This document shows, one piece after another, positions 1,558 through 51,297 of a DNA stretch of 51,398 nucleotides (positions are counted from its first letter, which is position 1; every line of letters begins with the position of its first letter). Both the position numbers and the translations under genes were made by a program. The notes below the pieces were generated by a model. That model did no database searches. It worked only from the letters and a program-made list of their open reading frames with translations, and was not told where the DNA came from. The stretch is from Clostridia bacterium. Lineage in GTDB: Bacteria; Bacillota; Clostridia; Christensenellales; Borkfalkiaceae. Location: assembly GCA_017457215.1 (NCBI GenBank), contig JAFTHU010000011.1, positions 1 through 51,398 of the forward strand. The letters are read 5' to 3'.

Positions 1558-2103
1558 ATGAAAAAGAAATTATTGATAACGGCATTGCTTGCCTTTATGA
1601 TGCTTTCAGCGGTTGCTTGCGGCAAAAGCGACGAGCAGTCTTCCGTACAATCGTCTGTAACAAGCGAATCGACTGAAATGAGCGAAAGTTCTGAAACAAG
1701 CGAAACACCCGAAATGAGTGAAACGTCTGAAACGAGTGAAACGTCTGTAACAAGCGAATCGAATGAAATGAGCGAAAGTTCTGAAACGAGCGAAACACCC
1801 GAAATGAGTGAAACGTCTGAAACGAGTGAAGAAGGCGAAAAAGAAGAAATTTATTATACGGTTACCTTTAATTCGGACGGCGGCAGCGAAGTAGCTCCTA
1901 TGAGCATTTTAGCGGGGGAGAAAGTTTCCAAACCGACTGATCCGCAAAAATCGTCGAGCTCGTCGGAGTACGAATTTCTCTATTGGGAATATAACGGCGA
2001 AGAATGGGATTTTGAGAAGAACGTCGTGACGGAAAACATTACGCTTGTGGCGAAGTGGAAGAAAGTCGCTTCGTACACGCCACCCTTCTTACCTAAAGAT
2101 TGA
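1558..2103 (+). CDS. Lipoprotein with Ser/Glu-rich stalk and one InlB-type (Listeria-Bacteroides) repeat
   Basis: The 181-residue protein begins with a Lys-rich N-terminus, a hydrophobic core and S-A-V-A-C, a permissive lipobox, so it is probably a lipid-anchored exported protein. Residues about 25-95 are a low-complexity Ser/Glu/Thr stalk made of two near-identical 30-residue units. Residues about 98-167 match the InlB B-repeat / Flg_new pattern: Y-T-V-T-F-N-S-D-G-G-S, then P-T-D-P, then a W-x(3)-G-E-E-W-D-F block, ending L-V-A-K-W. It starts at ATG 1558 with an AGAGGG Shine-Dalgarno just upstream, 10 bp after the previous gene. The design is an anchor, a spacer and one small beta-grasp-like domain. 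A cell-surface adhesive or scaffolding role is inference; no enzymatic motif is visible. The C-terminus is short and polar, without LPXTG. Confidence 0.85.
   Translation: MKKKLLITALLAFMMLSAVACGKSDEQSSVQSSVTSESTEMSESSETSETPEMSETSETSETSVTSESNEMSESSETSETPEMSETSETSEEGEKEEIYYTVTFNSDGGSEVAPMSILAGEKVSKPTDPQKSSSSSEYEFLYWEYNGEEWDFEKNVVTENITLVAKWKKVASYTPPFLPKD
1654..1830 (+). repeat. 90-bp in-frame tandem repeat (two copies)
   Basis: The unit starting TCTGTAACAAGCGAATCG at 1654 begins again at 1744, giving a 90-bp (30-residue) period with only a few substitutions. It encodes the Ser/Glu-rich stalk of the lipoprotein, itself built from shorter S-E-T-S-E-T-P-like hexads. Copy number could vary by slippage or recombination. 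Confidence 0.85.
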
Positions 2104-5589: not shown

Positions 5590-8500
5590 ATGATAACGCC
5601 AAACGTAGAAGAAAGATTAGAAACGGTTGTTGAGCTGTTAAAAAAATGGCGTATAAGTAAGCAGGAATTTTTACCTGTATTGTATACGGATAATGTTTAC
5701 GATAAGCAGACCATTCCCGTCGGATATGACGGCTGGCAGACGTTTGCCGCGCCGTATACGGTTTATGAAAAAGAAAAATATTATTGGTTTAAAGCTTCTT
5801 TTGAAATAAACAGAGAATACCCTCAACAAAAAGCATACTTCTGTTTGGATACGCATATCGTTGGGGTGGCTTCTACAATTCGTCCGCAAGGATTGCTGTA
5901 TTTAAACGGAGAACTTGTGCAAGGTATCGATATCAATCACGGAGACGTTTTGCTTGAAGACGGTAAGTATGAGATGTATTTGCTGTTTTACACGCATACG
6001 TTTGATAGATATTTGCCGTTAGACTTTTCGTTAAAATACGTGGACGAGCGTATTGACGGACTGTATTATGACTTACTTATTCCATTGCAGGCTGTTAAGC
6101 TCCTTGCAAAAAGCAGTAACGAATACGTTGCATCGGCAAGCCTTTTGGAAAAGGCGCTCAATCGTTTGGATGTGAGAGAGGTCTATTCCGACGATTTTTA
6201 TGCGTCCGTGGAAGAGGTTAGGAACTTCTTGAAAAGAGAATATTACGGTGGTGTTTGCGGCAGCAAGCAAACCGTTGCCTGTATCGGGCATACTCATATC
6301 GACGTCGCTTGGATGTGGGATTTAGAACAAACGAAGCAAAAGGTGGAAAGAAGCTTTTCCACTGTATTAAAGCTGATGGATGAGTATCCCGAATACAAGT
6401 TCTTTTCTTCGCAACCGCAACTGTTCGATTTTTTAAAGGAACGTAATCCCGAGCTGTACGGCAGAGTCAAGGAAAAGATACTCGAAGGCAGATGGGAAGT
6501 AGACGGTGGAATGTGGTTGGAGGCGGATTGCAATTTGACAAGCGGCGAAAGTCTTGTTCGTCAAATTACGTATGGAAAGCGTTTTTTTAAAGAGGAATTC
6601 GGAAAGGAATGTGAAACCGTATGGTTGCCTGACGTTTTCGGGTATTCGGCATCCTTGCCGCAAATTATGCAAAAAAGCGGTTTAAAAAATTTTGTTACGG
6701 CGAAAATCGGTTGGAATGATACCAACCGCATGCCTTACGATGCGTTCATGTGGCGTGGTATTGACGGAAGTGAGATTTTTGCATATTTCTTGTCTACCTG
6801 CGAATGTGATCCGAGAAACGGTATATACGATCACACGTATACGACCTATACGGCGCCGATTACGCCTATGTACGTTTTGGGTACATGGAATCGTTTTCAG
6901 CAAAAGGACTTTTCCGATACCGTCATTATGAGTTACGGTTGGGGCGATGGTGGCGGCGGTCCAACTCGCGAGGATATTGAATTTGAAAGAAGATTGCAGG
7001 GCGGCTTACCTGGGATACCGAAAACCAAGATAGAAACCTTGGAAAATTCCTTGCGTACAATCAGAGAAAATTACGAAAAGAACGCCGAAGAGCTTCAAAG
7101 AAAGCCTGTTTGGAACGGCGAACTGTATTTTGAATATCACCGCGGCACGTTATCTAGCGTACCGCAAGTAAAAATGAACAACCGCAAGGGAGAATTCGCC
7201 CTTATGAACGCCGAGCTTTTCGGGGTTTTGGGAAGTCTGTTATGCAATAAAAAATATCCTGAAGCATTGCTTAGAAAAAACTGGAAATTATTATTGCTCA
7301 ATCAGTTCCATGATATTTTACCTGGTTCGTCTATTGGCGACGTATACAAGGACAGTAACGCGCAGTTTGAAGAGATTTTTGCTGATACAGACTGTGTGAT
7401 AGACTGCGTGTTGGAGACGGTGGCTTCACAAGTAAAAACCGACGGGGGCTTGTTGGTTTTTAATCCTAACGGTTTTATGGCAGATGGAACGGTTACCGTA
7501 AATGGGAATACGTATATCGCAAAAGATATTCCTGCTTTTGGATATAAAGTCGTGCAAAAGGAAAATGCAGATAGCAACGTGAAGGTATCGGCTAACACGC
7601 TGGAAAACAGTTATTATAAATTGACGTTTGATAAGTCGGGCGCAATTTGCTCTTTAATAGATAAACGTGTGGGGAGAGAGCTTGTAAAAAGTGGCCGTCT
7701 GCTCAATCAAATGGTTGTATTCCAAGATACTCCGTATCAATATGACAATTGGGAAATGACTCCTTATCATAAACAAAACAAGTGGCTTTTAGATGCGGAA
7801 GCGGAATTTCAGACCCTTTTAGAAGGGGATAGGGCAGGCTTTGCCATCAAAAAACGGTACGGAAATTCCGTTATTACACAAAAAGTTTATTTATACGAGG
7901 ACGGCATCGATCGTATCGATTTTGTAACGGACGTAGACTGGAAGGAGAAAAATCAGCTATTGAAAACGGTTTTTCCGTTTGACGTGATGGCGGATAAGGC
8001 GAGCTACGACATACAATTCGGGCACGTGGAACGCGCTATGCACGACAATACGAGCTGGGATTCGGCGAGATTTGAATCTGCCGCACAAAAATGGGTGGAT
8101 GTTTCTGAAAACGATTACGGTGTTGCTCTTTTAAACGACGGGAAATACGGTTTTGGCGTAGACAATGGGGAGTTGTCAATGACAATATTGAAATCGGGTA
8201 GCTTTCCGTTTGATGGGGCAAGCGATATTGTGCCTACGTTCGTTTATTCTCTTTTACCGCACAAAGCTCGCGCATGCGACGGCGGAGTTGTGGAAAAGTC
8301 GTATGTTTTAAACAGACCTTTCTTTGTGAAGGAGTTGCAGAAAAATGAAAACGGACGATTACCCACCGAATGGTCTTTGTTACATTGCGAAACAAAAGGG
8401 GTAATGATTGAAACGGTGAAACGCTCAGAATCGGGTGATGGAATCGTGATACGTATGTATGAGGCGTATAAAGAACGTAAAACGGTCAAGTTGTCCGTTC

Positions 8501-8644: not shown

Positions 8645-10753
8645 ATGGAGATTTTTAAATTGACGAACGAAACGTTCGTCGCGATTGATTTTGAACACGG
8701 TGAAATTGCGGACATTACGCAAAAGGGACGGCGTGTCAACGACGGGCGTGTGCCGATGTTTTCCGTGAAATTGAGAAAAAGAACGGGAGAATCGCATATC
8801 GTTTCTTCCAACGAATGTGCGTTTGTATCGGTAAAAAACGGTACTGCAATATACACCTCCGATTTTTTTGATATCGAGGTGATTTTAAGGCAGGAAAACG
8901 ATAGGCTTATTTGGCGTGCAAATGTAAAAAATAAAACGCAGGATTTATTGGAATGGATCGAACTTGCGTCTTTTTCCGTTTTCGAAAGACTCAAAGATGA
9001 GGCACAGGGTAGAGGCGAGATTATTTATCCTTATAATGAGGGCTGTAAGGTTACGAATATGGCATATCGGGAAAGTATGCCGTTTAAGTATGCGGAACCC
9101 GACTATCCCAGTAGAAATTCTTTTTCGATCTTTCCCAATATGATCTTTGCGCAGTTTATCTCGTACATAACGGACGGTATTGGGATTTATTTGGGAATGC
9201 ACGACGAAGAAAGGACGACAAAGCATATCGATTTTTGCTATTATAGCGGCCAAATCAAAATTTTTATGCGTTCTTTTTGCGATGTGGATTATGGGCAGGA
9301 TTATACGATGCCTTTCGATTGCGTGTTTACCGTTTTCAATGGGGACTGGTATGCGGCGGCGGATATTTATTTTCAATGGTTTTCCAAGCATTTACCGAGT
9401 GGGCTTCAAAAGATTGTCGAAAATAAAAATTTGCCCGTATGGTATGAAGAATCCCCGTTGGTCGTAGCTTATCCACTGCGTGGGGAACGCGACATTGAAA
9501 CGACGGAAAATGGCATGTATCCCTATAAAAATGCTATGCCGTTGCTTGAGGAAATTGAGGAACAAACGGACAGTAAGGTAATGGCGCTTTTGATGCACTG
9601 GGAGGGGACGGCACCTTGGGCTCCGCCCTACGTATGGCCTCCTTACGGCGGAGAAACGGAATTTACTTCGTTTGTGGACGCTTTACACGAAAAAGATATG
9701 TATATCGGCTTATATTGTAGCGGCTTGGGTTGGACGCAGCAAAGCAAAATTGACAAAAACTACAACTGCGAGGAAAAATTCGAGAATCTCCATATAGCCG
9801 ATAATATCTGCTCTGATTCCGACGGAAAGGTGGAAAGTGTCATTTGTTTGGCTCAAAGGGATGGTTACGATTTCTGTCCGAGTAGCGAAACGGTGAAGAA
9901 TCTTTTCAAAGAGGAATTCTCTAAAATTTATAAAAGCAAGATAGACTACGTCCAAGCGCTTGATCAAAACCATGGCGGCGGCTCCTATTTTTGTTACAGT
10001 GATAAACACGGACACATACCTGCTCCTGGCAAATGGCAACAAATCGAGGTAAATAGGCTTTTGTCGTCCATCGATAAAAACGGCGTTTTGTTGGGTTGTG
10101 AATCTGCCGCTGCCGAGCCCTTTTTGTCCCAGTTATCATTCAGTGATAACCGTTTTCAGCTGAATTATTATGTGGGCATGCCAATTCCCGTTTACGCGTA
10201 TCTTTATCACGAATACGTAAACAACTTTATGGGAAACCAGATATGTACAATGCTGGAAAAGAAAGAAAATAATTTTACGTATCGGCTTGCATATTCTTTT
10301 GTTGCTGGCGACATGCTGACCGTCGTGATAAACGGCAAGGGAGATATTTTGCATTCTTGGTGCGATTACGTTGAACCACAGGAAAAGCATGTGGATAAAG
10401 ATGTTGCGCTTTCGTTTATCAAAACGCTGAATAGTTGGCGGCAAAAGGGCGGGAAGAATTTCTTGCATTACGGAAAAATGATTGCGCCGATAGGTCTGCA
10501 ATGCGCGAAAGAAAAATTTCTTTTGGAAGATGAAAAGACGTATTTGATAACCGATTCCGTTTTGAGTGCTGCTTACGAATACGGTGGGGAACGCGTGCAG
10601 TTTGTGGTCAATTACAATCTTGCACCCGCGGAAGTTGTTTTCAGTAAGAAATGCGAAGTGTATTTTGACAGCGATTTGCACCTTTACAAAAAGGACGTGG
10701 ATAAAATTACGATAGACCCGTTGTCAGTAGTTATGATAAAATTGGAGAGTTAA
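8645..10753 (+). CDS. Putative glycosidase of the DUF6259-like type
   Basis: The protein has 702 residues, no signal peptide and no TM helix. The first 260 residues or so look like a beta-sandwich of the kind that precedes TIM barrels in retaining glycosidases. The following part has barrel-like strand ends such as V-M-A-L-L-M-H-W-E-G, M-Y-I-G-L-Y-C-S-G and I-D-Y-V-Q-A-L-D-Q-N-H-G-G, in which acidic residues could be catalytic. The C-terminus (F-V-V-N-Y-N-L then I-D-P-L-S-V-V-M-I) resembles the small beta domain that closes alpha-galactosidase-like enzymes. I assign it to the DUF6259-like group from overall pattern, with moderate confidence; substrate unknown. It lies between the GH38 and GH112 genes with gaps of 16 and 6 bp, so it probably acts on the same host-type glycans. 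The start at 8645 has AAGG about 8 bp upstream. Confidence 0.7.
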   Translation: MEIFKLTNETFVAIDFEHGEIADITQKGRRVNDGRVPMFSVKLRKRTGESHIVSSNECAFVSVKNGTAIYTSDFFDIEVILRQENDRLIWRANVKNKTQDLLEWIELASFSVFERLKDEAQGRGEIIYPYNEGCKVTNMAYRESMPFKYAEPDYPSRNSFSIFPNMIFAQFISYITDGIGIYLGMHDEERTTKHIDFCYYSGQIKIFMRSFCDVDYGQDYTMPFDCVFTVFNGDWYAAADIYFQWFSKHLPSGLQKIVENKNLPVWYEESPLVVAYPLRGERDIETTENGMYPYKNAMPLLEEIEEQTDSKVMALLMHWEGTAPWAPPYVWPPYGGETEFTSFVDALHEKDMYIGLYCSGLGWTQQSKIDKNYNCEEKFENLHIADNICSDSDGKVESVICLAQRDGYDFCPSSETVKNLFKEEFSKIYKSKIDYVQALDQNHGGGSYFCYSDKHGHIPAPGKWQQIEVNRLLSSIDKNGVLLGCESAAAEPFLSQLSFSDNRFQLNYYVGMPIPVYAYLYHEYVNNFMGNQICTMLEKKENNFTYRLAYSFVAGDMLTVVINGKGDILHSWCDYVEPQEKHVDKDVALSFIKTLNSWRQKGGKNFLHYGKMIAPIGLQCAKEKFLLEDEKTYLITDSVLSAAYEYGGERVQFVVNYNLAPAEVVFSKKCEVYFDSDLHLYKKDVDKITIDPLSVVMIKLES

Positions 10754-14603: not shown

Positions 14604-14694
14604 TGTATTTTTAAAAAGAGCGATTATCCGAAAATAAAAAAGCTCTAGCGGGATAAAAACTTATTAGGTGGTTTAGTTTAATGTATTGATTTTT

Positions 14695-14943
14695 TGGACA
14701 GTATTTGGACAGAAACCGCTGAAAGCCTTTAACTTAAAGGCTTTCAGCGGTTCGTTATTAGGCTTCGAGTCCCGTACGGGTCACCAGCAAATCCCTAAAT
14801 CGAACATTGTTCGGTTTAGGGATTTTGCTTTTGGCACTCCGCACGGATTGGCTTGGTTCTACGGTTCGCGCGAGGCAATTTATTGCCGACGCTCTCCGAG
14901 AGGTCTCCGTTTGCGGAGTATCGGAGATACCCGTACGGGTCAC
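14695..14943 (+). mobile_element. Integration scar / att-like element A with tRNA-Glu 3'-end mimic
   Basis: TGGACA occurs at 14695 and 14706 (11-bp period). A near-perfect 17-19 bp hairpin with a tiny loop follows at 14714-14752. Then 28 nt at 14764-14791 are identical to the T-arm, acceptor, CCA and following bases of tRNA-Glu (27436-27463). Next come an A/T-flanked hairpin (14790-14825) and a second CCCGTACGGGTCAC at 14930, a direct repeat of 14771-14784. Exact duplication of a tRNA 3' end is what site-specific integration of a tRNA-targeting element leaves behind. No intact integrase is present. Copy B at 36400-36583 is the same element with an internal 67-nt block missing. Confidence 0.6.
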
Positions 14944-19174: not shown

Positions 19175-19227
19175 GCAAAAGCATATAAGTCGCCGCAGTA
19201 AAAAAGAAAACATAAACGGCAAAATAC

Positions 19228-19399
19228 TAAATAGCTCTTCACGTAGGGTGACAGTCGTACGGGTATTCTCCCGTATGCCCAGCGTAAGGGGACAAGGATT
19301 ACGCTTCGGCGGCGATACCCTTTCCTTTGCATTTAAACGCAAGCCCTGTCCAAGGCTGGCTCGATGCAAAATACTGATGTTCAGCCGCTCCTCTATTTA
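19228..19399 (-). promoter_or_regulatory. Lysine riboswitch (L-box) upstream of asd
   Basis: Read on the minus strand, the leader carries the L-box landmarks in order: AGAGGAGCGGC, ATCAGTATTT, GGAAAGGGTATCGCCGCCGAAG, then GCTGGG, then GGGAGAATACCC, then CGACTGTCACC, and finally GAAGAGCTAT. The ends TAAATAG and CTATTTA form P1. It begins just after a consensus promoter and is followed by a terminator before asd. Known L-boxes bind lysine and close expression of lysine-synthesis genes, which matches the operon it leads. Confidence 0.93.
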
Positions 19400-19407
19400 A
19401 CAAAGAT

Positions 19408-27383: not shown

Positions 27384-27458
27384 GGCCCGTTGGTCAAGCG
27401 GTTAAGACACCACCCTTTCACGGTGGTAACATGGGTTCGAGTCCCGTACGGGTCACCA
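27384..27458 (+). tRNA. tRNA-Glu (TTC)
   Basis: Acceptor GGCCCGT pairs with ACGGGTC, the anticodon loop is CTTTCAC, the T-arm is ATGGG-TTCGAGT-CCCGT, and CCA is encoded. Its 3' end (27436-27463) is duplicated exactly at 14764-14791 and in part at 36465-36484, which points to tRNA-Glu as an integration target. Confidence 0.96.
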
Positions 27459-27460
27459 GC

Positions 27461-27492
27461 AAAAAAGGATAGGCAAACGCCTATCCTTTTTT
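27461..27492 (+). terminator. Terminator of the tRNA cluster
   Basis: A 14-bp stem has AAAAAAGGATAGGC pairing with GCCTATCCTTTTTT across a 4-nt AAAC loop. Confidence 0.92.
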
Positions 27493-36374: not shown

Positions 36375-36399
36375 GAAACTTATATGGGTTGATTTTTTT

Positions 36400-36583
36400 T
36401 GGACAGTATTTGGACACAAACCGCTGAAAGGCTTTAAAACAAAGGCTTTCAGCGGTTCGTTGTTAGGCTTCGAGTCCCGTACGGATTGGCTTGGTTCTAC
36501 GGTTCGTGCGAGGCGATTTATTGCCGACGCTCTCCGAGAGGTCTCCGCTTGCGGAGTATCGGAGATACCCGTACGGTTCACCG
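36400..36583 (+). mobile_element. Integration scar / att-like element B, deleted copy of element A
   Basis: TGGACA occurs at 36400 and 36411 (11-bp period). The same ACCGCTGAAAG/CTTTCAGCGGT hairpin follows, then a tRNA-Glu T-arm mimic (TTCGAGTCCCGTACGG at 36469-36484) and the same Cys-rich-looking hairpin block ending GATACCCGTACGG. Over 44 nt (36441-36484 versus 14736-14779) I count one mismatch. The next block (from 36485) aligns with A from 14847 with four mismatches over about 95 nt. Relative to A, 67 nt are missing between two ACGG words. Confidence 0.6.
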
Positions 36584-47046: not shown

Positions 47047-47121
47047 TGGGGCGTCGCCAAGCGGTAAGGCAACGGACTCTGACTCCGTCATTCGGGTGTT
47101 CGAATCACTTCGCCCCAGCCA
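47047..47121 (+). tRNA. tRNA-Gln (CTG)
   Basis: Acceptor TGGGGCG pairs with CGCCCCA, the anticodon stem-loop is ACGGA-CTCTGAC-TCCGT (anticodon CTG), the discriminator is G, and CCA is encoded. The T-stem has two G-U pairs. The body is otherwise the usual bacterial tRNA-Gln. RHS modules begin directly downstream. Confidence 0.93.
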
Positions 47122-47161
47122 AAAATACAGCACACCAAAACGGTGTGCTGTATTTTTGGCT
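47117..47161 (+). terminator. Perfect 20-bp terminator hairpin overlapping the tRNA-Gln 3' end
   Basis: The left arm starts at the last acceptor base of tRNA-Gln (47117-47136) and pairs perfectly with 47142-47161 across a 5-nt loop. The stem is A/T-rich on the outside with TATTTTTGG near the end. It terminates the tRNA transcript and shields the RHS module behind it. Confidence 0.85.
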
Positions 47162-48324
47162 ACGTCGCGGAGCGCGAGAAAACCCGCGGTAATCGGGTGT
47201 TCGCGCGAGCGCCGTCCGAAAACGAAAAAGGCAGACGGTTGAGCAAGGATAATATTACGTTCACGTACGATTCGCAAGGCAGAGTAATAAAACAAAGCAA
47301 CGACTTAGAGTTCTTCTATGACCATACGGGCGTTGCGGCGGTGAAATATAGAAACAAGATGTATTTTTATCGCAAAGACGCGCAAGGAAATATTATAGCG
47401 CTACTTGACAACAGCGGGCTGGTTGTGGTAGAATATAGCTACGACGCGTGGGGAAGACATACCTGTTTTGATGAATCAACGATAAATCTTGGTGTGGCGA
47501 ATCCGTTTAGATACCGTGGATATTATTACGACGTAGAAACGGGTTTGTATTTCCTTAAGACGAGATATTACGACCCTGAAATCGGCAGATTTATGTCCAT
47601 TGACGGCATTGAATATCTTGATCCTGAAAGCATTAATGGTCTTAACCTGTACGCCTATTGCAACAACAACCCTGTAATGAATATCGATCCTAACGGTAAC
47701 AAATGGTGGAAAAAACTTTGGCGTGGCGTGGTGGACGTATGTTCAGCTGTTGGAAGTTTCTTCGTTACCTATGGTGCGGCTATAGGTGCCAGTGCATTAG
47801 CAGTCTTAGGACTTGCCGTTGGAGTAGTTGGAACTATATTTACGGGTGGACTGTTAGGAGCTGTTATACTTGGAGCAGGGATTGGGTTCTTCAGTGGTGT
47901 AGCTGCCAATATGGCAATACAAGTGTCGAATAGTGGTTGGGCTAATATGGACTTTGGTGCTGCTATGAAAAGTGGCGGTATAGGGGCTCTTGTTGGCGCA
48001 GCTTCAGGGGCGATTTCCTTTGGATTCGGAACTATAGGTTCTTTCTATGGACAGATGGCTGGCAATCTCTTAAGTAATATGAGAATAGCGGGGTTAGCAT
48101 TAGGAAGTGCTTTTTCCTATTTAGGTGGGGCTTCGTTGTTTTCCGCAATTGGAACGGGCGCGGGTTATCTTTTAGGTTCATTTGTGGGTTCCGCTTTAGG
48201 GAATGAACTTATGAATAATTTGTTCGGTTATAATCCTTCATCACAAGAAAATATTTCAGAAAGTGTCACTGGATTGATTATGGATGGAATCATGAAATTC
48301 TTTGGAAAGCTTTGGGGTCAGTAA
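47143..48324 (+). CDS. Orphan RHS C-terminal module 1 with glycine-rich hydrophobic tip (5'-truncated)
   Basis: The open frame of 393 residues begins inside the tRNA-Gln terminator. Real RHS homology starts near 47227 (G-R-R-L-S-K), with no promoter or convincing ribosome site. T-Y-D-S-Q-G-R and F-F-Y-D-H-T-G repeats lead into the RHS-associated core (F-R-Y-R-G-Y-Y-Y-D, T-R-Y-Y-D-P-E-I-G-R-F, N-P-V-M-N-I-D-P-N-G), which ends at residue 185. The 208-residue tip after it starts W-W-K-K-L-W-R-G-V. It is a run of glycine-zipper hydrophobic segments and closes with F-G-Y-N-P-S-S-Q-E-N. No nuclease or deaminase motif is seen. I infer a membrane-inserting toxin tip in a silent donor cassette; the full-length RHS carrier is not in the window. 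A related membrane protein, the putative immunity gene, follows after 1 bp. Confidence 0.75.
   Translation: MCCIFGYVAEREKTRGNRVFARAPSENEKGRRLSKDNITFTYDSQGRVIKQSNDLEFFYDHTGVAAVKYRNKMYFYRKDAQGNIIALLDNSGLVVVEYSYDAWGRHTCFDESTINLGVANPFRYRGYYYDVETGLYFLKTRYYDPEIGRFMSIDGIEYLDPESINGLNLYAYCNNNPVMNIDPNGNKWWKKLWRGVVDVCSAVGSFFVTYGAAIGASALAVLGLAVGVVGTIFTGGLLGAVILGAGIGFFSGVAANMAIQVSNSGWANMDFGAAMKSGGIGALVGAASGAISFGFGTIGSFYGQMAGNLLSNMRIAGLALGSAFSYLGGASLFSAIGTGAGYLLGSFVGSALGNELMNNLFGYNPSSQENISESVTGLIMDGIMKFFGKLWGQ
47446..47561 (+). repeat. RHS core direct repeat, copy 1
   Basis: These 116 nt are identical to 49103-49218. After one mismatch the match continues for about 39 further bases, and the whole core (about 47227-47697) is conserved. 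The block could serve as a homologous-recombination arm for swapping tips. Confidence 0.9.
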
Positions 48325-48325
48325 T

Positions 48326-48811
48326 ATGGAAAAAATAGTTGCTTCATTAAAATATGGACGTATTCATCGGAAAAGCTTGTTTTTTTTATGGGTTATGTTT
48401 GCGTTTGGGATTTTTCTTGTAATATATTCATTTATTTTTTTATTTGGGGTAGAACAAAGCGTAATTGGTTTTATTGGTGTGATGTTAGCTGGTATTATCT
48501 TTCTAGGGACTGCACTATATATAATTATTAAAAATTATATAAATTGTAAGAGTTGTAAGAAGTGGGTACAAGATGCCGTTGCATTGAATGCAATTAGCGA
48601 GGGTATAAAGAAGGCATATTTTGGATTTTCTGATATTGGACTTAGAAAGCTTAAGGTTTCATTTAAGTATGATAAGAAGAAATATGTAAAATATAGTGGA
48701 ACGAAACAAGGAAATGGTTACGATAGGGTGTTTTTTCGATATGCAGATGCTGAAATTAAGATTTTATATTCACCCAAATTTGATGAAGTGATGATTTTGA
48801 ACGATAAATAA
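48326..48811 (+). CDS. Putative immunity protein 1 (two-TM membrane protein)
   Basis: The 161-residue protein starts at ATG 48326, one base after the RHS module stop, with GGGG at 48314-48317; an in-frame extension to 48302 lies inside the RHS gene. It begins M-E-K-I-V-A-S-L-K-Y-G-R. Two TM helices at about 17-40 and 45-72 follow, and a soluble tail of about 85 residues contains F-K-Y-D-K-K-K-Y-V-K. The V-A-S-L-K-x-G-R start, two-TM layout and K-K-Y-V-K / D-V-(M/L)-I end are shared with the protein at 49967. The gene is visibly more A/T-rich than the housekeeping genes here. I infer immunity to the membrane-acting RHS tip; there is no functional evidence. Confidence 0.65.
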   Translation: MEKIVASLKYGRIHRKSLFFLWVMFAFGIFLVIYSFIFLFGVEQSVIGFIGVMLAGIIFLGTALYIIIKNYINCKSCKKWVQDAVALNAISEGIKKAYFGFSDIGLRKLKVSFKYDKKKYVKYSGTKQGNGYDRVFFRYADAEIKILYSPKFDEVMILNDK

Positions 48812-48821
48812 TGAATAAAAG

Positions 48822-48853
48822 AAAAGGTCGTGAGAGATTTCTTGCGACCTTTT
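48822..48853 (+). terminator. Terminator between immunity gene 1 and RHS module 2
   Basis: AAAAGGTCG (48822-48830) pairs with CGACCTTTT (48845-48853) across a 14-nt loop. The frame of RHS module 2 opens within this hairpin. Confidence 0.8.
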
Positions 48854-49957
48854 ACCCAATATTACGTATGCCATAAAGACGCGCAAGGCAGACGTCTTAC
48901 TAAAAATACCATAGAGTTTACGTACGATTCGCAGGGCAGATTGGTAAAACAAAGTAACGGATTAGAGTTCTTCTACGACCATACGGGCGTTGTCGCAGTA
49001 AAATATAACGGGAATATGTATTTTTACCGCAAAGACGTGCAAGGAAATATCGTTGCGATAGTTGACAGCAGCGGTTGGCTTATGGTAGAATACAATTACG
49101 ATGCGTGGGGAAGACATACCTGTTTTGATGAATCAACGATAAATCTTGGTGTGGCGAATCCGTTTAGATACCGTGGATATTATTACGACGTAGAAACGGG
49201 TTTGTATTTCCTTAAGACAAGATATTACGACCCTGAAATCGGCAGATTTATGTCCATTGATGGTATTGAATATCTTGACCCTGAAACCATTAACGGTCTT
49301 AACTTGTACGCATATTGCAACAACAACCCTGTAATGAATATCGATCCTAACGGCACGTGGAGTTGGAAGAAGTTCTGGAAAGGAGTTGGGGGATGGTTGG
49401 CTGTTGGGATAGGGACAGTTCTTTCTGTAGTAGCCATAGCCGCTGGGACTATTATCTCTGGAGGTTCATTGGCGCTTTTAGGGGGTATTCTTATCGGCGC
49501 AGGCTCAGGATTTTTCTTTAGTGCAGGGCTTAATATTATTGATCAAGGAGTTTCTACAAATTGGAATTGGGATAAAATGAATCCAATTGAAACACTTAAA
49601 GTGGGCGGTATTGGCTCTGCGGTTGGTGCTGTTAGTGGAGTTGCCTCGGGGTATATTGGTTCTGTTTTTGAAACTTCAGGTAAAATATTTGGATATTTCT
49701 TAGGAAAGAGCACTATTGGAGGTTTAAATGTTGCTAAAGCATTTTCTTCATTGGGAGGAATAGGAATACTCACTAAAGTATTTGCATTTATGGGAAAAAC
49801 AGTTGGAGCCTTTATTGGGGCTATGGTTGCTAATGAATATGCAAATCAGTGGTTTGGGAAAAATCCTACAAATGAGGAAAATGTTCAGGACGCCGTAAAA
49901 GGTGCTTTTTGGGATAATGTTTTCAGTGGAATATATAATATTTTTAAATGGAGTTAG
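48830..49957 (+). CDS. Orphan RHS C-terminal module 2 with a different glycine-rich tip (5'-truncated)
   Basis: The 375-residue open frame starts at a GTG in the left arm of the preceding terminator. RHS homology begins near 48886 (A-Q-G-R-R-L-T-K). The core is almost the same as in module 1 and ends at N-I-D-P-N-G (residue 175). The 200-residue tip starts W-S-W-K-K-F-W-K-G-V, has several glycine-zipper hydrophobic stretches, and ends W-F-G-K-N-P-T-N-E-E-N and an aromatic amphipathic C-terminus. The tip is clearly diverged from tip 1 yet keeps its plan. No start signals are seen, so I regard it as a silent donor module. Its putative immunity gene follows after 9 bp. Confidence 0.75.
   Translation: MRDFLRPFTQYYVCHKDAQGRRLTKNTIEFTYDSQGRLVKQSNGLEFFYDHTGVVAVKYNGNMYFYRKDVQGNIVAIVDSSGWLMVEYNYDAWGRHTCFDESTINLGVANPFRYRGYYYDVETGLYFLKTRYYDPEIGRFMSIDGIEYLDPETINGLNLYAYCNNNPVMNIDPNGTWSWKKFWKGVGGWLAVGIGTVLSVVAIAAGTIISGGSLALLGGILIGAGSGFFFSAGLNIIDQGVSTNWNWDKMNPIETLKVGGIGSAVGAVSGVASGYIGSVFETSGKIFGYFLGKSTIGGLNVAKAFSSLGGIGILTKVFAFMGKTVGAFIGAMVANEYANQWFGKNPTNEENVQDAVKGAFWDNVFSGIYNIFKWS
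49103..49218 (+). repeat. RHS core direct repeat, copy 2
   Basis: Identical over 116 nt to 47446-47561. Modules 1 and 2 diverge sharply only after the N-I-D-P-N-G codons, the usual switch point between RHS core and variable tip. Confidence 0.9.
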
Positions 49958-49966
49958 AAATAAAAC

Positions 49967-50446
49967 ATGAAAAGATATCAAGTGGTTGCTTCATTAAAAA
50001 TGGGCAGAGTTTATTCTCGGTTTATTAGAGTTATTGCTTTAATTGGTTCTCTTCTAGGAGTGCTAATGTTTCCTTTGGCAATATGTATTCTCATTATAGA
50101 AAAAGATCCTGCATTTTTTTGTTTAGTTTTTTTTGCCGCTTTAGTTATGTCAGGTTGTATTTATACCTATATAAAATTAGTAGAAGTTCATAGGCATGTA
50201 TTGCTTGTATTTAAGGATGGATATGAACTTGATGGGGATACGATGCGAACGTGTATCAATGGTAATATTTTAGATGAACGCTTAACGGTTAAATTTTTTT
50301 ATCAAGGGAAAAAATATGTAAAAATCAGCGATAAGCCTAATATACGAAAGCCCTTTTTGGGTTATAAAGCGTTTCGACGTTATATGGATAAATCTATACG
50401 AATTTTTTATTCGGAAACTCAAGATGATGTTTTAATCGTAAAATGA
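49967..50446 (+). CDS. Putative immunity protein 2 (two-TM membrane protein)
   Basis: The 159-residue protein begins M-K-R-Y-Q-V-V-A-S-L-K-M-G-R. Two TM helices at about 20-45 and 50-72 follow, then a soluble tail with F-F-Y-Q-G-K-K-Y-V-K and a D-D-V-L-I-V-K end. It is a diverged homologue of the protein at 48326 and sits in the same place behind its own RHS tip. GGAG occurs at 49950, some distance from the ATG. It ends before a strong terminator. I infer the cognate immunity protein for tip 2. As with pair 1, this rests on position, membrane topology and shared pattern. Confidence 0.65.
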   Translation: MKRYQVVASLKMGRVYSRFIRVIALIGSLLGVLMFPLAICILIIEKDPAFFCLVFFAALVMSGCIYTYIKLVEVHRHVLLVFKDGYELDGDTMRTCINGNILDERLTVKFFYQGKKYVKISDKPNIRKPFLGYKAFRRYMDKSIRIFYSETQDDVLIVK

Positions 50447-50447
50447 T

Positions 50448-50492
50448 AAAAAAAGTCCAAGCGATTTAGAGATAAAGTGCTTGGACTTTTTT
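50448..50492 (+). terminator. Terminator after immunity gene 2
   Basis: AAAAGTCCAAGC (50451-50462) pairs with GCTTGGACTTTT (50479-50490) across a 16-nt loop, with T residues after it. Confidence 0.88.
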
Positions 50493-50608
50493 CTAAATGA
50501 AATAGTTTTGATGATTAAACAAACCCCAGGCGCAATTTTGGTGTCCGAATATGAATTGAAGAAACATAAAACAACAAAATAAGAAGAACGTTATCCTCAC
50601 TAGCTATT

Positions 50609-51297
50609 ATGAGCACGGAAGAAGGAGAAGAAAACAGTACGCAGAGAAAATATTTCTTTGGTAAACTGGTGGAGCTTCGCAGTGGAAATAACGTGATAGA
50701 GTATGCGTATAATTACGTAAACGGCTATAAGAATCGTGTGGAAAGCATATAAGCTACAACGGTGTGGAAGATTACGTAGTGAGAACGTATAGCGAAGTAA
50801 CGGAAGATGGTTACACGTATGACGAAGTGGAAACGGTAAATGAAAACGGGGAAACGATAACCGTTCGTACAGATAAACGCGGTAATGTGCGTTCGCGAGC
50901 GTACAGCGACGGAAGCCGATTGGAATATACGTATAACGCAAGCAAGAGAGACCGACTGTTGGGCGTACAAGAAAAGCAGGCTAACGTTACGGTAAGAACG
51001 TTTGCATATACGTATGACGAAGTGGGAAATTTGTTAACGTATACGGAGAAAGAGGGTACGGAGGTAGAACAAAGGGAAACGTATACGTATAATGAATTTA
51101 ACCAAGTAATCCGCGTAACGCAGACGGCAGGCGTTACGTATGCCTATACCTATAAAGACGATTCAACTCGCGCATTGGAGAATATAAACGTAAATAATGA
51201 TATAAATATTAAGCCAAAGCTGGACGATTTGGGTAGAAACAAGGGTAGAGATATATATATAGGGACGGATAAGATTGCAGAAGAGCAAATCGTATAA
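50609..51297 (+). pseudogene. RHS/YD-repeat fragment, frameshifted and 3'-truncated
   Basis: The frame from 50609 encodes K-L-V-E-L-R-S-G-N-N-V-I-E-Y-A-Y-N-Y and stops at 50750 in AGCATATAAGC. Removing the two extra bases (50750-50751) joins V-E-S-I to S-Y-N-G-V-E-D-Y and the 50764-51297 frame. That frame contains YD repeats (Y-T-Y-D-E-V, L-E-Y-T-Y-N, Y-T-Y-N-E-F-N-Q-V) and ends at L-G-R-N-K-G-R-D-I-Y-I-G-T-D-K-I-A-E-E-Q. In full-length clostridial RHS proteins that last motif lies well before the core, so the 3' part is missing here. It has no start signal. Together with modules 1 and 2 it suggests an RHS gene broken into pieces. From 50493 to 50608 I see no gene, and 51298-51398 is A/T-rich without features. 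Confidence 0.7.

What the first reader, a model, noticed from the sequence alone, without database searches (positions are those of the whole stretch)
47117..51297. Array of silent, terminator-insulated RHS cassettes next to tRNA-Gln
Two RHS C-terminal modules and one internal RHS fragment lie in tandem on the same strand. None has a promoter or good ribosome site. Module 1 opens inside the tRNA-Gln terminator, module 2 opens inside the terminator of immunity gene 1, and the third fragment follows the terminator of immunity gene 2. That is what a non-expressed reservoir of tip/immunity modules would look like, comparable in concept to orphan CdiA-CT/CdiI or rhs-CT modules, but here every module is sealed by a terminator.
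Basis: partly seen in the sequence, partly recalled or inferred. Interest (0 to 1): 0.75.

Follow-up and report, generated by a model that had tools for sequence, protein, structure and literature searches.

The report
RHS toxin cassettes with hidden promoters
Two spare toxin-tip and immunity gene pairs from a gut bacterium are probably not silent: each appears to carry its own promoter hidden inside protein-coding sequence, so the immunity gene can be made while the toxin tip waits to be joined to a delivery gene.

Summary
The anatomy is real: two tandem orphan RHS modules (core 3' end, tip, immunity gene) and a broken RHS shell fragment follow tRNA-Gln, with strong hairpins at all three junctions. 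But 'no promoter' is wrong. Each core contains TTGACA-N15-TGGTAGAAT (47405-47434, 49062-49091): the only two sites of this motif in the 1.25-Mb genome, 0.04 expected in the window. It matches ordinary promoters of the genus. In relatives, codon choice preserves it beyond what the protein requires (V56=GTA in 51 of 55 copies). Nine of 12 comparable orphan cassettes begin 0-27 nt upstream of its -35; in some, the previous cassette's terminator abuts the -35. Four of eight truncated remnants are just promoter, leader and an immunity-like gene. Another RHS family carries an 11-12/12 promoter at a different core site in its main gene and all six orphans. Overall 43 of 105 orphan cassettes have such a promoter, 0 on the reverse strand. 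Best reading: portable promoter-tip-immunity-terminator units, immunity on, toxin unused until fused to full-length RHS. Orphan modules, tip displacement and an enterobacterial internal rhs promoter are known; this is a differently placed variant in Clostridia. No expression data exist.

The parts
47047..47121 (+). tRNA-Gln (CTG)
   Evidence: ARAGORN; Rfam
47117..47161 (+). hairpin terminator after tRNA-Gln, 20-bp stem
   Evidence: -35.3 kcal/mol, z -8.1
47228..47697 (+). module 1 RHS core homology arm
47405..47434 (+). promoter 1 inside the core: -35 TTGACA 47405-47410, TG 47426-47427, -10 TAGAAT 47429-47434
   Evidence: conservation
47680..48324 (+). tip 1, 214 aa from NIDPNG, glycine-rich and hydrophobic
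   Evidence: homologous to tip 2 (35%, E 7.8e-42)
48326..48811 (+). immunity-like gene 1, 161 aa membrane protein
   Evidence: 84% homolog in G052
48822..48853 (+). hairpin terminator after immunity gene 1 (short T tail)
   Evidence: -18.6 kcal/mol, z -5.0
48885..49354 (+). module 2 RHS core homology arm
49062..49091 (+). promoter 2 inside the core: -35 TTGACA 49062-49067, -10 TAGAAT 49086-49091
49337..49957 (+). tip 2, 206 aa from NIDPNG
49967..50446 (+). immunity-like gene 2, 159 aa, 30% identical to gene 1 (E 2.6e-11)
50449..50492 (+). hairpin terminator after immunity gene 2, T6 tail
   Evidence: -21.4 kcal/mol, z -6.1
50610..51297 (+). broken RHS shell (YD-repeat) fragment, no core, no tip

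Best explanation
The two modules are displaced ('orphan') RHS tip/immunity cassettes that keep a stretch of RHS core as a homology arm. Inside that arm each carries a sigma-A promoter overlapping the codons for [LV]D..G..[VM]VEY. Transcription would start about 240 nt before the tip and run through tip and immunity gene to the cassette's own terminator; the upstream terminator keeps out read-through. Because the immunity gene has a start and the tip has no clear one, the likely product is immunity protein, with the tip kept as spare ammunition that becomes a toxin only when recombination in the core joins it to a full-length secreted RHS. SHOWN by sequence: modules, hairpins, promoter motif, its selective retention in relatives, cassette trimming, tip-less remnants, the same tip/immunity family on a full-length RHS. 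INFERRED: promoter activity, immunity expression, lack of tip translation, toxin activity (probably membrane-active), reloading by recombination.
For: Motif: 2 in the window vs 0.04 expected. In 57 genomes of the genus a stricter form gives 57 sites against 0 for the backward control, and only the two RHS sites in the own genome; of 31 sites in 30 loci, 21 are intergenic 5' of a gene or tRNA and 5 are in or beside RHS. Codon choice in 55 cores chosen by amino acids alone: V56=GTA 51/55 vs 124/341 elsewhere in the same cores, D49=GAC 53/55 vs 236/424; one per locus, n=31, p 5e-10 and 1.5e-6. Residue 57 is E, K, Q, S, R, N or stop, yet 46/55 codons keep TAN[AC]AT. Positional scan: 10.84 vs 8.06 by synonymous null, z 15, the clear outlier. 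Boundaries of 9/12 class orphans with a main gene in the same locus lie 0-27 nt upstream of the -35; hairpin upstream within 110 nt in 9 of 24 orphans printed. G052 keeps promoter, leader and an 84% homolog of immunity gene 1 without tip; 4 of 8 remnants alike. Second site in G273, 7 of 7 copies, 0 reverse. Overall 43/105 orphans, 0/105 reverse, 0.8 by shuffles. Shine-Dalgarno: immunity 19/30 strong, best tip start 6/34. Core 59-147 dN/dS 0.044 between the two modules.
Against: No expression data. 62 of 105 orphans lack an 11/12 promoter. Three class orphans in G092 (L038) have long arms, 196-1012 nt above the -35, and weaker motifs. In G136 (L104) two orphans start at the same codon although their core lacks the motif, so part of the boundary pattern may be mechanistic. 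The window's own arms reach 177 nt above the -35 and its hairpins lie 243 and 208 nt above it. Module 2 has in-frame TTG codons with strong SD-like stretches. Copies are related by descent, so the tests are not fully independent. No full-length RHS was found in the own, 73% complete genome. A control stretch in the shell had the motif in 2 of 38 mains vs 0.1 expected.
Confidence: 0.72

Rival explanations
1. Fully silent reservoir: no transcription; tips and immunity genes are used only after recombination.
For: Terminators at all three junctions; no clear tip start in module 1; displaced tips are described as shunted to a silent position in Jackson 2009 (passages).
Against: Consensus promoter in each core, kept by codon choice, boundaries and remnants.
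Confidence: 0.1
2. The internal promoter drives both toxin tip and immunity as a resident toxin-antitoxin pair, as reported for Salmonella rhs.
For: Salmonella P2 internal promoters and toxic internal ORFs (passages); two in-frame TTG candidates with SD-like stretches in module 2; intact tip frames.
Against: No conserved tip start: best in-frame start strong in only 6 of 34 orphans, against 19 of 30 immunity starts; tip-less remnants keep the immunity side.
Confidence: 0.2
3. The conserved 30-nt motif is a recombination or exchange site (or a coding coincidence) rather than a promoter; cassette boundaries mark where exchange happens.
For: Boundaries cluster at it; two orphans in L104 share the boundary without the promoter; window modules change abruptly from 22% to 3.6% divergence just after the -10.
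Against: The motif is the genus' ordinary promoter motif, mostly 5' of unrelated genes; spacer bases vary; a second, unrelated site with the same promoter form exists in G273; conservation exceeds the synonymous null.
Confidence: 0.08
4. Decaying remnants under no selection.
For: The third fragment is broken; many relatives hold fragments with stops.
Against: Both tips and immunity genes are open; dN/dS of core 59-147 is 0.044, and 0.178 over the whole core; tip/immunity pairs persist as homologs in other families of the order.
Confidence: 0.07

Closest known systems
Orphan rhs-CT/rhsI modules and C-terminal displacement arrays (Enterobacteria; Jackson 2009 PMC2935791, Koskiniemi 2014 PMC3967940)
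   Same: Core fragment plus variable tip plus immunity gene, in tandem, without normal translation start; core homology allows reloading of the main gene.
   Different: In the passages read, displaced tips are called silent or of unclear expression; here each unit has a built-in core promoter, hairpin insulation, and in relatives is often trimmed at the -35. No main gene in the window.
P2 internal rhs promoters of Salmonella Typhimurium (Starsta 2020, PMC7043789)
   Same: Promoter inside the conserved rhs core of main and orphan genes, transcribing tip and immunity gene.
   Different: P2 start lies 89 nt upstream of the DPxG motif (passage); here the predicted start is about 240 nt upstream, and in G273 at yet another site. 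There the toxin is made internally; here no conserved tip start is seen.
Orphan cdiA-CT/cdiI of E. coli EC93 (Poole 2011, PMC3150448)
   Same: Immunity protein made from the orphan while the orphan CT is not detected (passages).
   Different: [quoted passage not shown] here terminators block read-through and each unit has its own promoter.
Tse5, pore-forming Rhs toxin (PMC10684867)
   Same: Rhs-delivered tip thought to act on membranes.
   Different: No sequence match shown: a PDB sequence search with the tip profile gave only one hit, E 0.51, an uncharacterized protein. The resemblance is in composition only.

Membership tests
Orphan rhs-CT/rhsI module | 3' part of RHS core in frame with a variable tip | tested here: met
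   TIGR03696 in both, tip after NIDPNG
Orphan rhs-CT/rhsI module | small immunity-like gene directly downstream | tested here: met
   2 nt and 9 nt gaps; same pair on full-length RHS in G322
Orphan rhs-CT/rhsI module | no normal start/signal peptide; fragment much shorter than a full gene | tested here: met
   open frames 393 and 375 aa vs 1753-2334 aa
Orphan rhs-CT/rhsI module | lies downstream of a main rhs gene | tested here: inconclusive
   no full-length RHS in the 73% complete genome; array ends at contig end
Orphan rhs-CT/rhsI module | tip toxic, neutralised by its immunity protein | not testable with these tools
   needs bench work
Salmonella P2-type internal rhs promoter | consensus promoter within core upstream of tip | tested here: met
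Salmonella P2-type internal rhs promoter | same position, start 89 nt upstream of DPxG | tested here: not met
   predicted start about 240 nt upstream (coordinates); so analogous, not a member
Salmonella P2-type internal rhs promoter | mapped start and reporter activity | not testable with these tools
   no RNA data
Pore-forming Rhs toxin (Tse5-like) | sequence homology to Tse5-CT or known pore-former | tested here: not met
   no Pfam/NCBIfam tip match, PDB best E 0.51
Pore-forming Rhs toxin (Tse5-like) | fold / pore activity | not testable with these tools

The most novel reading that the evidence does not exclude
In one order of gut Clostridia, RHS cassettes have become portable transcription units. 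A sigma-A promoter written into the protein-coding core, evolved at two or more different core sites and separately from the enterobacterial P2, travels with every tip/immunity pair. A displaced weapon therefore never loses its immunity, while the toxin is armed only by fusion to the main gene.
Probability: 0.5. Interest if true: 0.75.

Novelty: new variant of a known kind. Interest (0 to 1): 0.6.

Why it matters
Poole and co-workers asked why orphan arrays keep toxin fragments if immunity is what counts, and noted that reloading a new tip would delete the old immunity gene. A promoter inside the exchanged homology arm would let each displaced pair keep its immunity expressed wherever it lands. 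It would also be a clear case of one DNA stretch serving as conserved protein code and promoter, with the codon choice as a directly testable signature, and it would give a sequence rule for finding live orphan immunity genes in uncultured gut bacteria.

Tried and rejected
Rejected: the 'fully silent' reading (promoter evidence); reading fragment 3 as a third cassette (no core, no tip, broken frame); the idea that all orphans are trimmed at the promoter (only 9 of 12 class orphans with a main gene in the same locus; long arms in L038, L105, L106 and in the window itself); the idea that every orphan is terminator-sealed (a strict scan found hairpins upstream of 6 of 37 class and 11 of 53 other orphans, 0.1 expected each; 90 of 107 orphans could be scanned). 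Boundary rows printed for L108 were not used because their query windows overlap neighbouring copies. The two L050 rows (6502, 6639) are pieces of one copy and are both counted. Led nowhere: a tip search for named relatives (no relative confirmed); PDB, Pfam and PADLOC searches with tips and immunity proteins (nothing above cut-offs; NCBIfam MAG0920 below its cut-off for immunity 1); structure prediction (switched off). Outside the order 38 scored copies reach at most 10.
Full report
THE OBSERVATION. The window is contig C35 of an unnamed, 73%-complete 1.25-Mb genome, and its right end is the contig end. After tRNA-Gln (47047-47121) come two modules on the + strand. Each has an RHS core 3' end (TIGR03696), a glycine-rich hydrophobic tip after N-I-D-P-N-G, and a small membrane-protein gene. 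The cores are 88% identical over 469 bp; tip 1 and tip 2 are 35% identical (E 7.8e-42), the two immunity-like proteins 30% (E 2.6e-11). Hairpins follow the tRNA, immunity gene 1 and immunity gene 2. A third piece, 50610-51297, is a broken YD-repeat shell fragment without core or tip.

THE PROMOTER. TTGACA-18-TAGAAT with an extended -10 TG lies in both cores at 47405-47434 and 49062-49091. With up to one mismatch the motif occurs twice in the window against 0.04 expected; 0 of 100 shuffles had two. Across 57 genomes of the genus, TTGACAN15TGGTANAATA has 57 sites and its backward control 0; in the window's own genome the only two are these. Of 31 such sites in 30 loci, 21 lie within 400 nt 5' of a gene or tRNA, 5 in or beside RHS, 3 inside same-strand frames (two of which merely start at the motif's TTG) and 2 inside opposite frames. 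It therefore looks like this genus' ordinary sigma-A promoter.

SELECTION ON DNA, NOT ONLY PROTEIN. RHS cores were found in 25 of 101 relatives, 102 of 396 genomes of the order and 16 of 57 of the genus. In the loci examined, 162 core matches were aligned. Choosing cores by amino acids alone ([LIVFM]D......V.Y) gave 55 copies in 31 loci. D49 is GAC in 53 of 55 (236 of 424 other D in the same cores) and V56 is GTA in 51 of 55 (124 of 341 other V); with one copy per locus p is 1.5e-6 and 5e-10. Residue 57 is E 23, K 18, Q 5, S 4, R 3, N 1 and stop 1, yet 46 of 55 codons keep a -10 of the form TAN[AC]AT; the exceptions are GAG 5, AGA 3, AAC 1. One dead copy (L050:6502) has a stop codon that makes the -10 a perfect TATAAT. 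Scanning all offsets with one copy per locus, this site scores 10.84 against 8.06 under a synonymous null (z 15); the next offset has z 8.8 but a score of only 3.9. From the genus labels I count by hand 18 genera with the class and 11 with a score of 11 or more. Outside the order, 38 scored copies reach at most 10. All these copies share ancestry, so the p values are not fully independent.

CASSETTE BOUNDARIES. Comparing orphans with a full-length gene in the same locus, DNA homology starts at 0, -3, 0 (L099), 0, -12 (L100) and -27, -15, -2, -3 (L112) relative to the first T of the -35; three class orphans of L038, whose motif is weaker, have arms 196-1012 nt longer. So 9 of 12 are trimmed to the promoter. 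Two orphans in L104 start at the same codon without having the motif, which weakens the inference. In one search, 9 of 24 printed orphans have a hairpin within 110 nt upstream, in some directly abutting the -35 (for example L099:4081, L100:5013). A strict scan gave 6 of 37 class and 11 of 53 other orphans against 0.1 expected each. The window modules themselves keep 177 nt of core above the -35.

REMNANTS. In G052 of the same genus the tip has been lost. What remains is about 100 nt of core starting at the -35, a leader, a Shine-Dalgarno-like GGGGTGAG and an 84% homolog of immunity gene 1, then the same hairpin. Of eight truncated copies with the motif, four lead to an immunity-like gene with a ribosome site (L044:6477, L119:4751, L095:3567, L095:6369), one to a 36-residue membrane peptide, and three to nothing clear.

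A SECOND SITE. In G273 (L108), whose core lacks this site, the full-length gene and all six orphans carry TTGAC[AT]-17-TAT[AG]AT about 26 codons further on; five of seven are perfect and none is on the reverse strand; at two orphans a hairpin abuts the -35. Over all 105 orphans tested, 43 have a promoter of at least 11 of 12 in or just above the core, 0 on the reverse strand, 0.8 expected from shuffles; 62 do not. Full-length genes: 7 of 39 in the core, and 2 of 38 in a control stretch of the shell.

TRANSLATION. Immunity starts have a strong Shine-Dalgarno match in 19 of 30 orphans, the best in-frame tip start in 6 of 34. Window module 2 is an exception for the tip (TTG starts with -10.2 and -9.2 kcal/mol), and both window immunity genes are modest (-5.9). 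Core codons 59-147 of the two modules differ almost only silently (dN/dS 0.044); 48 of 57 mismatches lie in the first 218 nt, followed by 116 identical nt beginning just after the -10, as expected if cores exchange. In G322 the same tip/immunity family is attached to a 2334-aa RHS, and it is orphan again in G312: tips do move between full-length and orphan settings.

MECHANISM. Best reading: each cassette is promoter - rest of core and tip - immunity gene - terminator. It makes its own immunity protein and holds the tip in reserve until recombination through the core fuses it to a secreted RHS. Promoter activity, immunity expression and tip silence are inferred. Tip function is unknown; composition and the membrane immunity proteins suggest a membrane target, with no sequence match to a known pore-former.

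COMPARISON. Passages and one Introduction read show that orphan modules, tip displacement, orphan immunity expression by read-through in CDI, and an internal rhs promoter in enterobacteria are known. The enterobacterial start is 89 nt before the DPxG motif, here about 240 nt. Seven literature searches in an open-licence library listed no paper on such promoters in Clostridia; I opened six papers only, and most subscription journals are not held. Hence: new variant of a known kind.

Noticed in passing
window 14690-14943 and 36395-36581: A repeat (93-95% identical pieces) with a strong hairpin, containing a stretch 97% identical to the 3' end of the tRNA-Glu at 27384-27458 (27433-27463): possible remnants of elements that duplicated a tRNA end.
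   Followed up: partly
window 1649-1830 and 2295-2458: Short direct repeats (about 66-92 bp units) in two adjacent frames that begin like lipoproteins with S/E/T-rich stretches.
   Followed up: no
window 19224-19403 (-): Lysine riboswitch (Rfam RF00168, 83 bits).
   Followed up: no
L095:3748-3800 and 6565-6620 (- strand): A small palindromic insert (CACCAAGCGGG...CCCGCTTGGTG) sits just after the -10 in two RHS remnants of G263, leaving the promoter intact.
   Followed up: no
L102:6936-7511: A lone extra immunity gene of the same family stands upstream of the full-length RHS in G322, without a tip beside it.
   Followed up: partly
L104:2573 and 4725 (- strand): Two orphans start at the same core codon as promoter-class orphans but bring a different upstream stretch with TTGCTATAAT; unexplained.
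   Followed up: partly
L037 near 9970-10300: A core fragment with the promoter stands upstream of an unrelated-looking 331+ aa gene, possibly a captured promoter.
   Followed up: no
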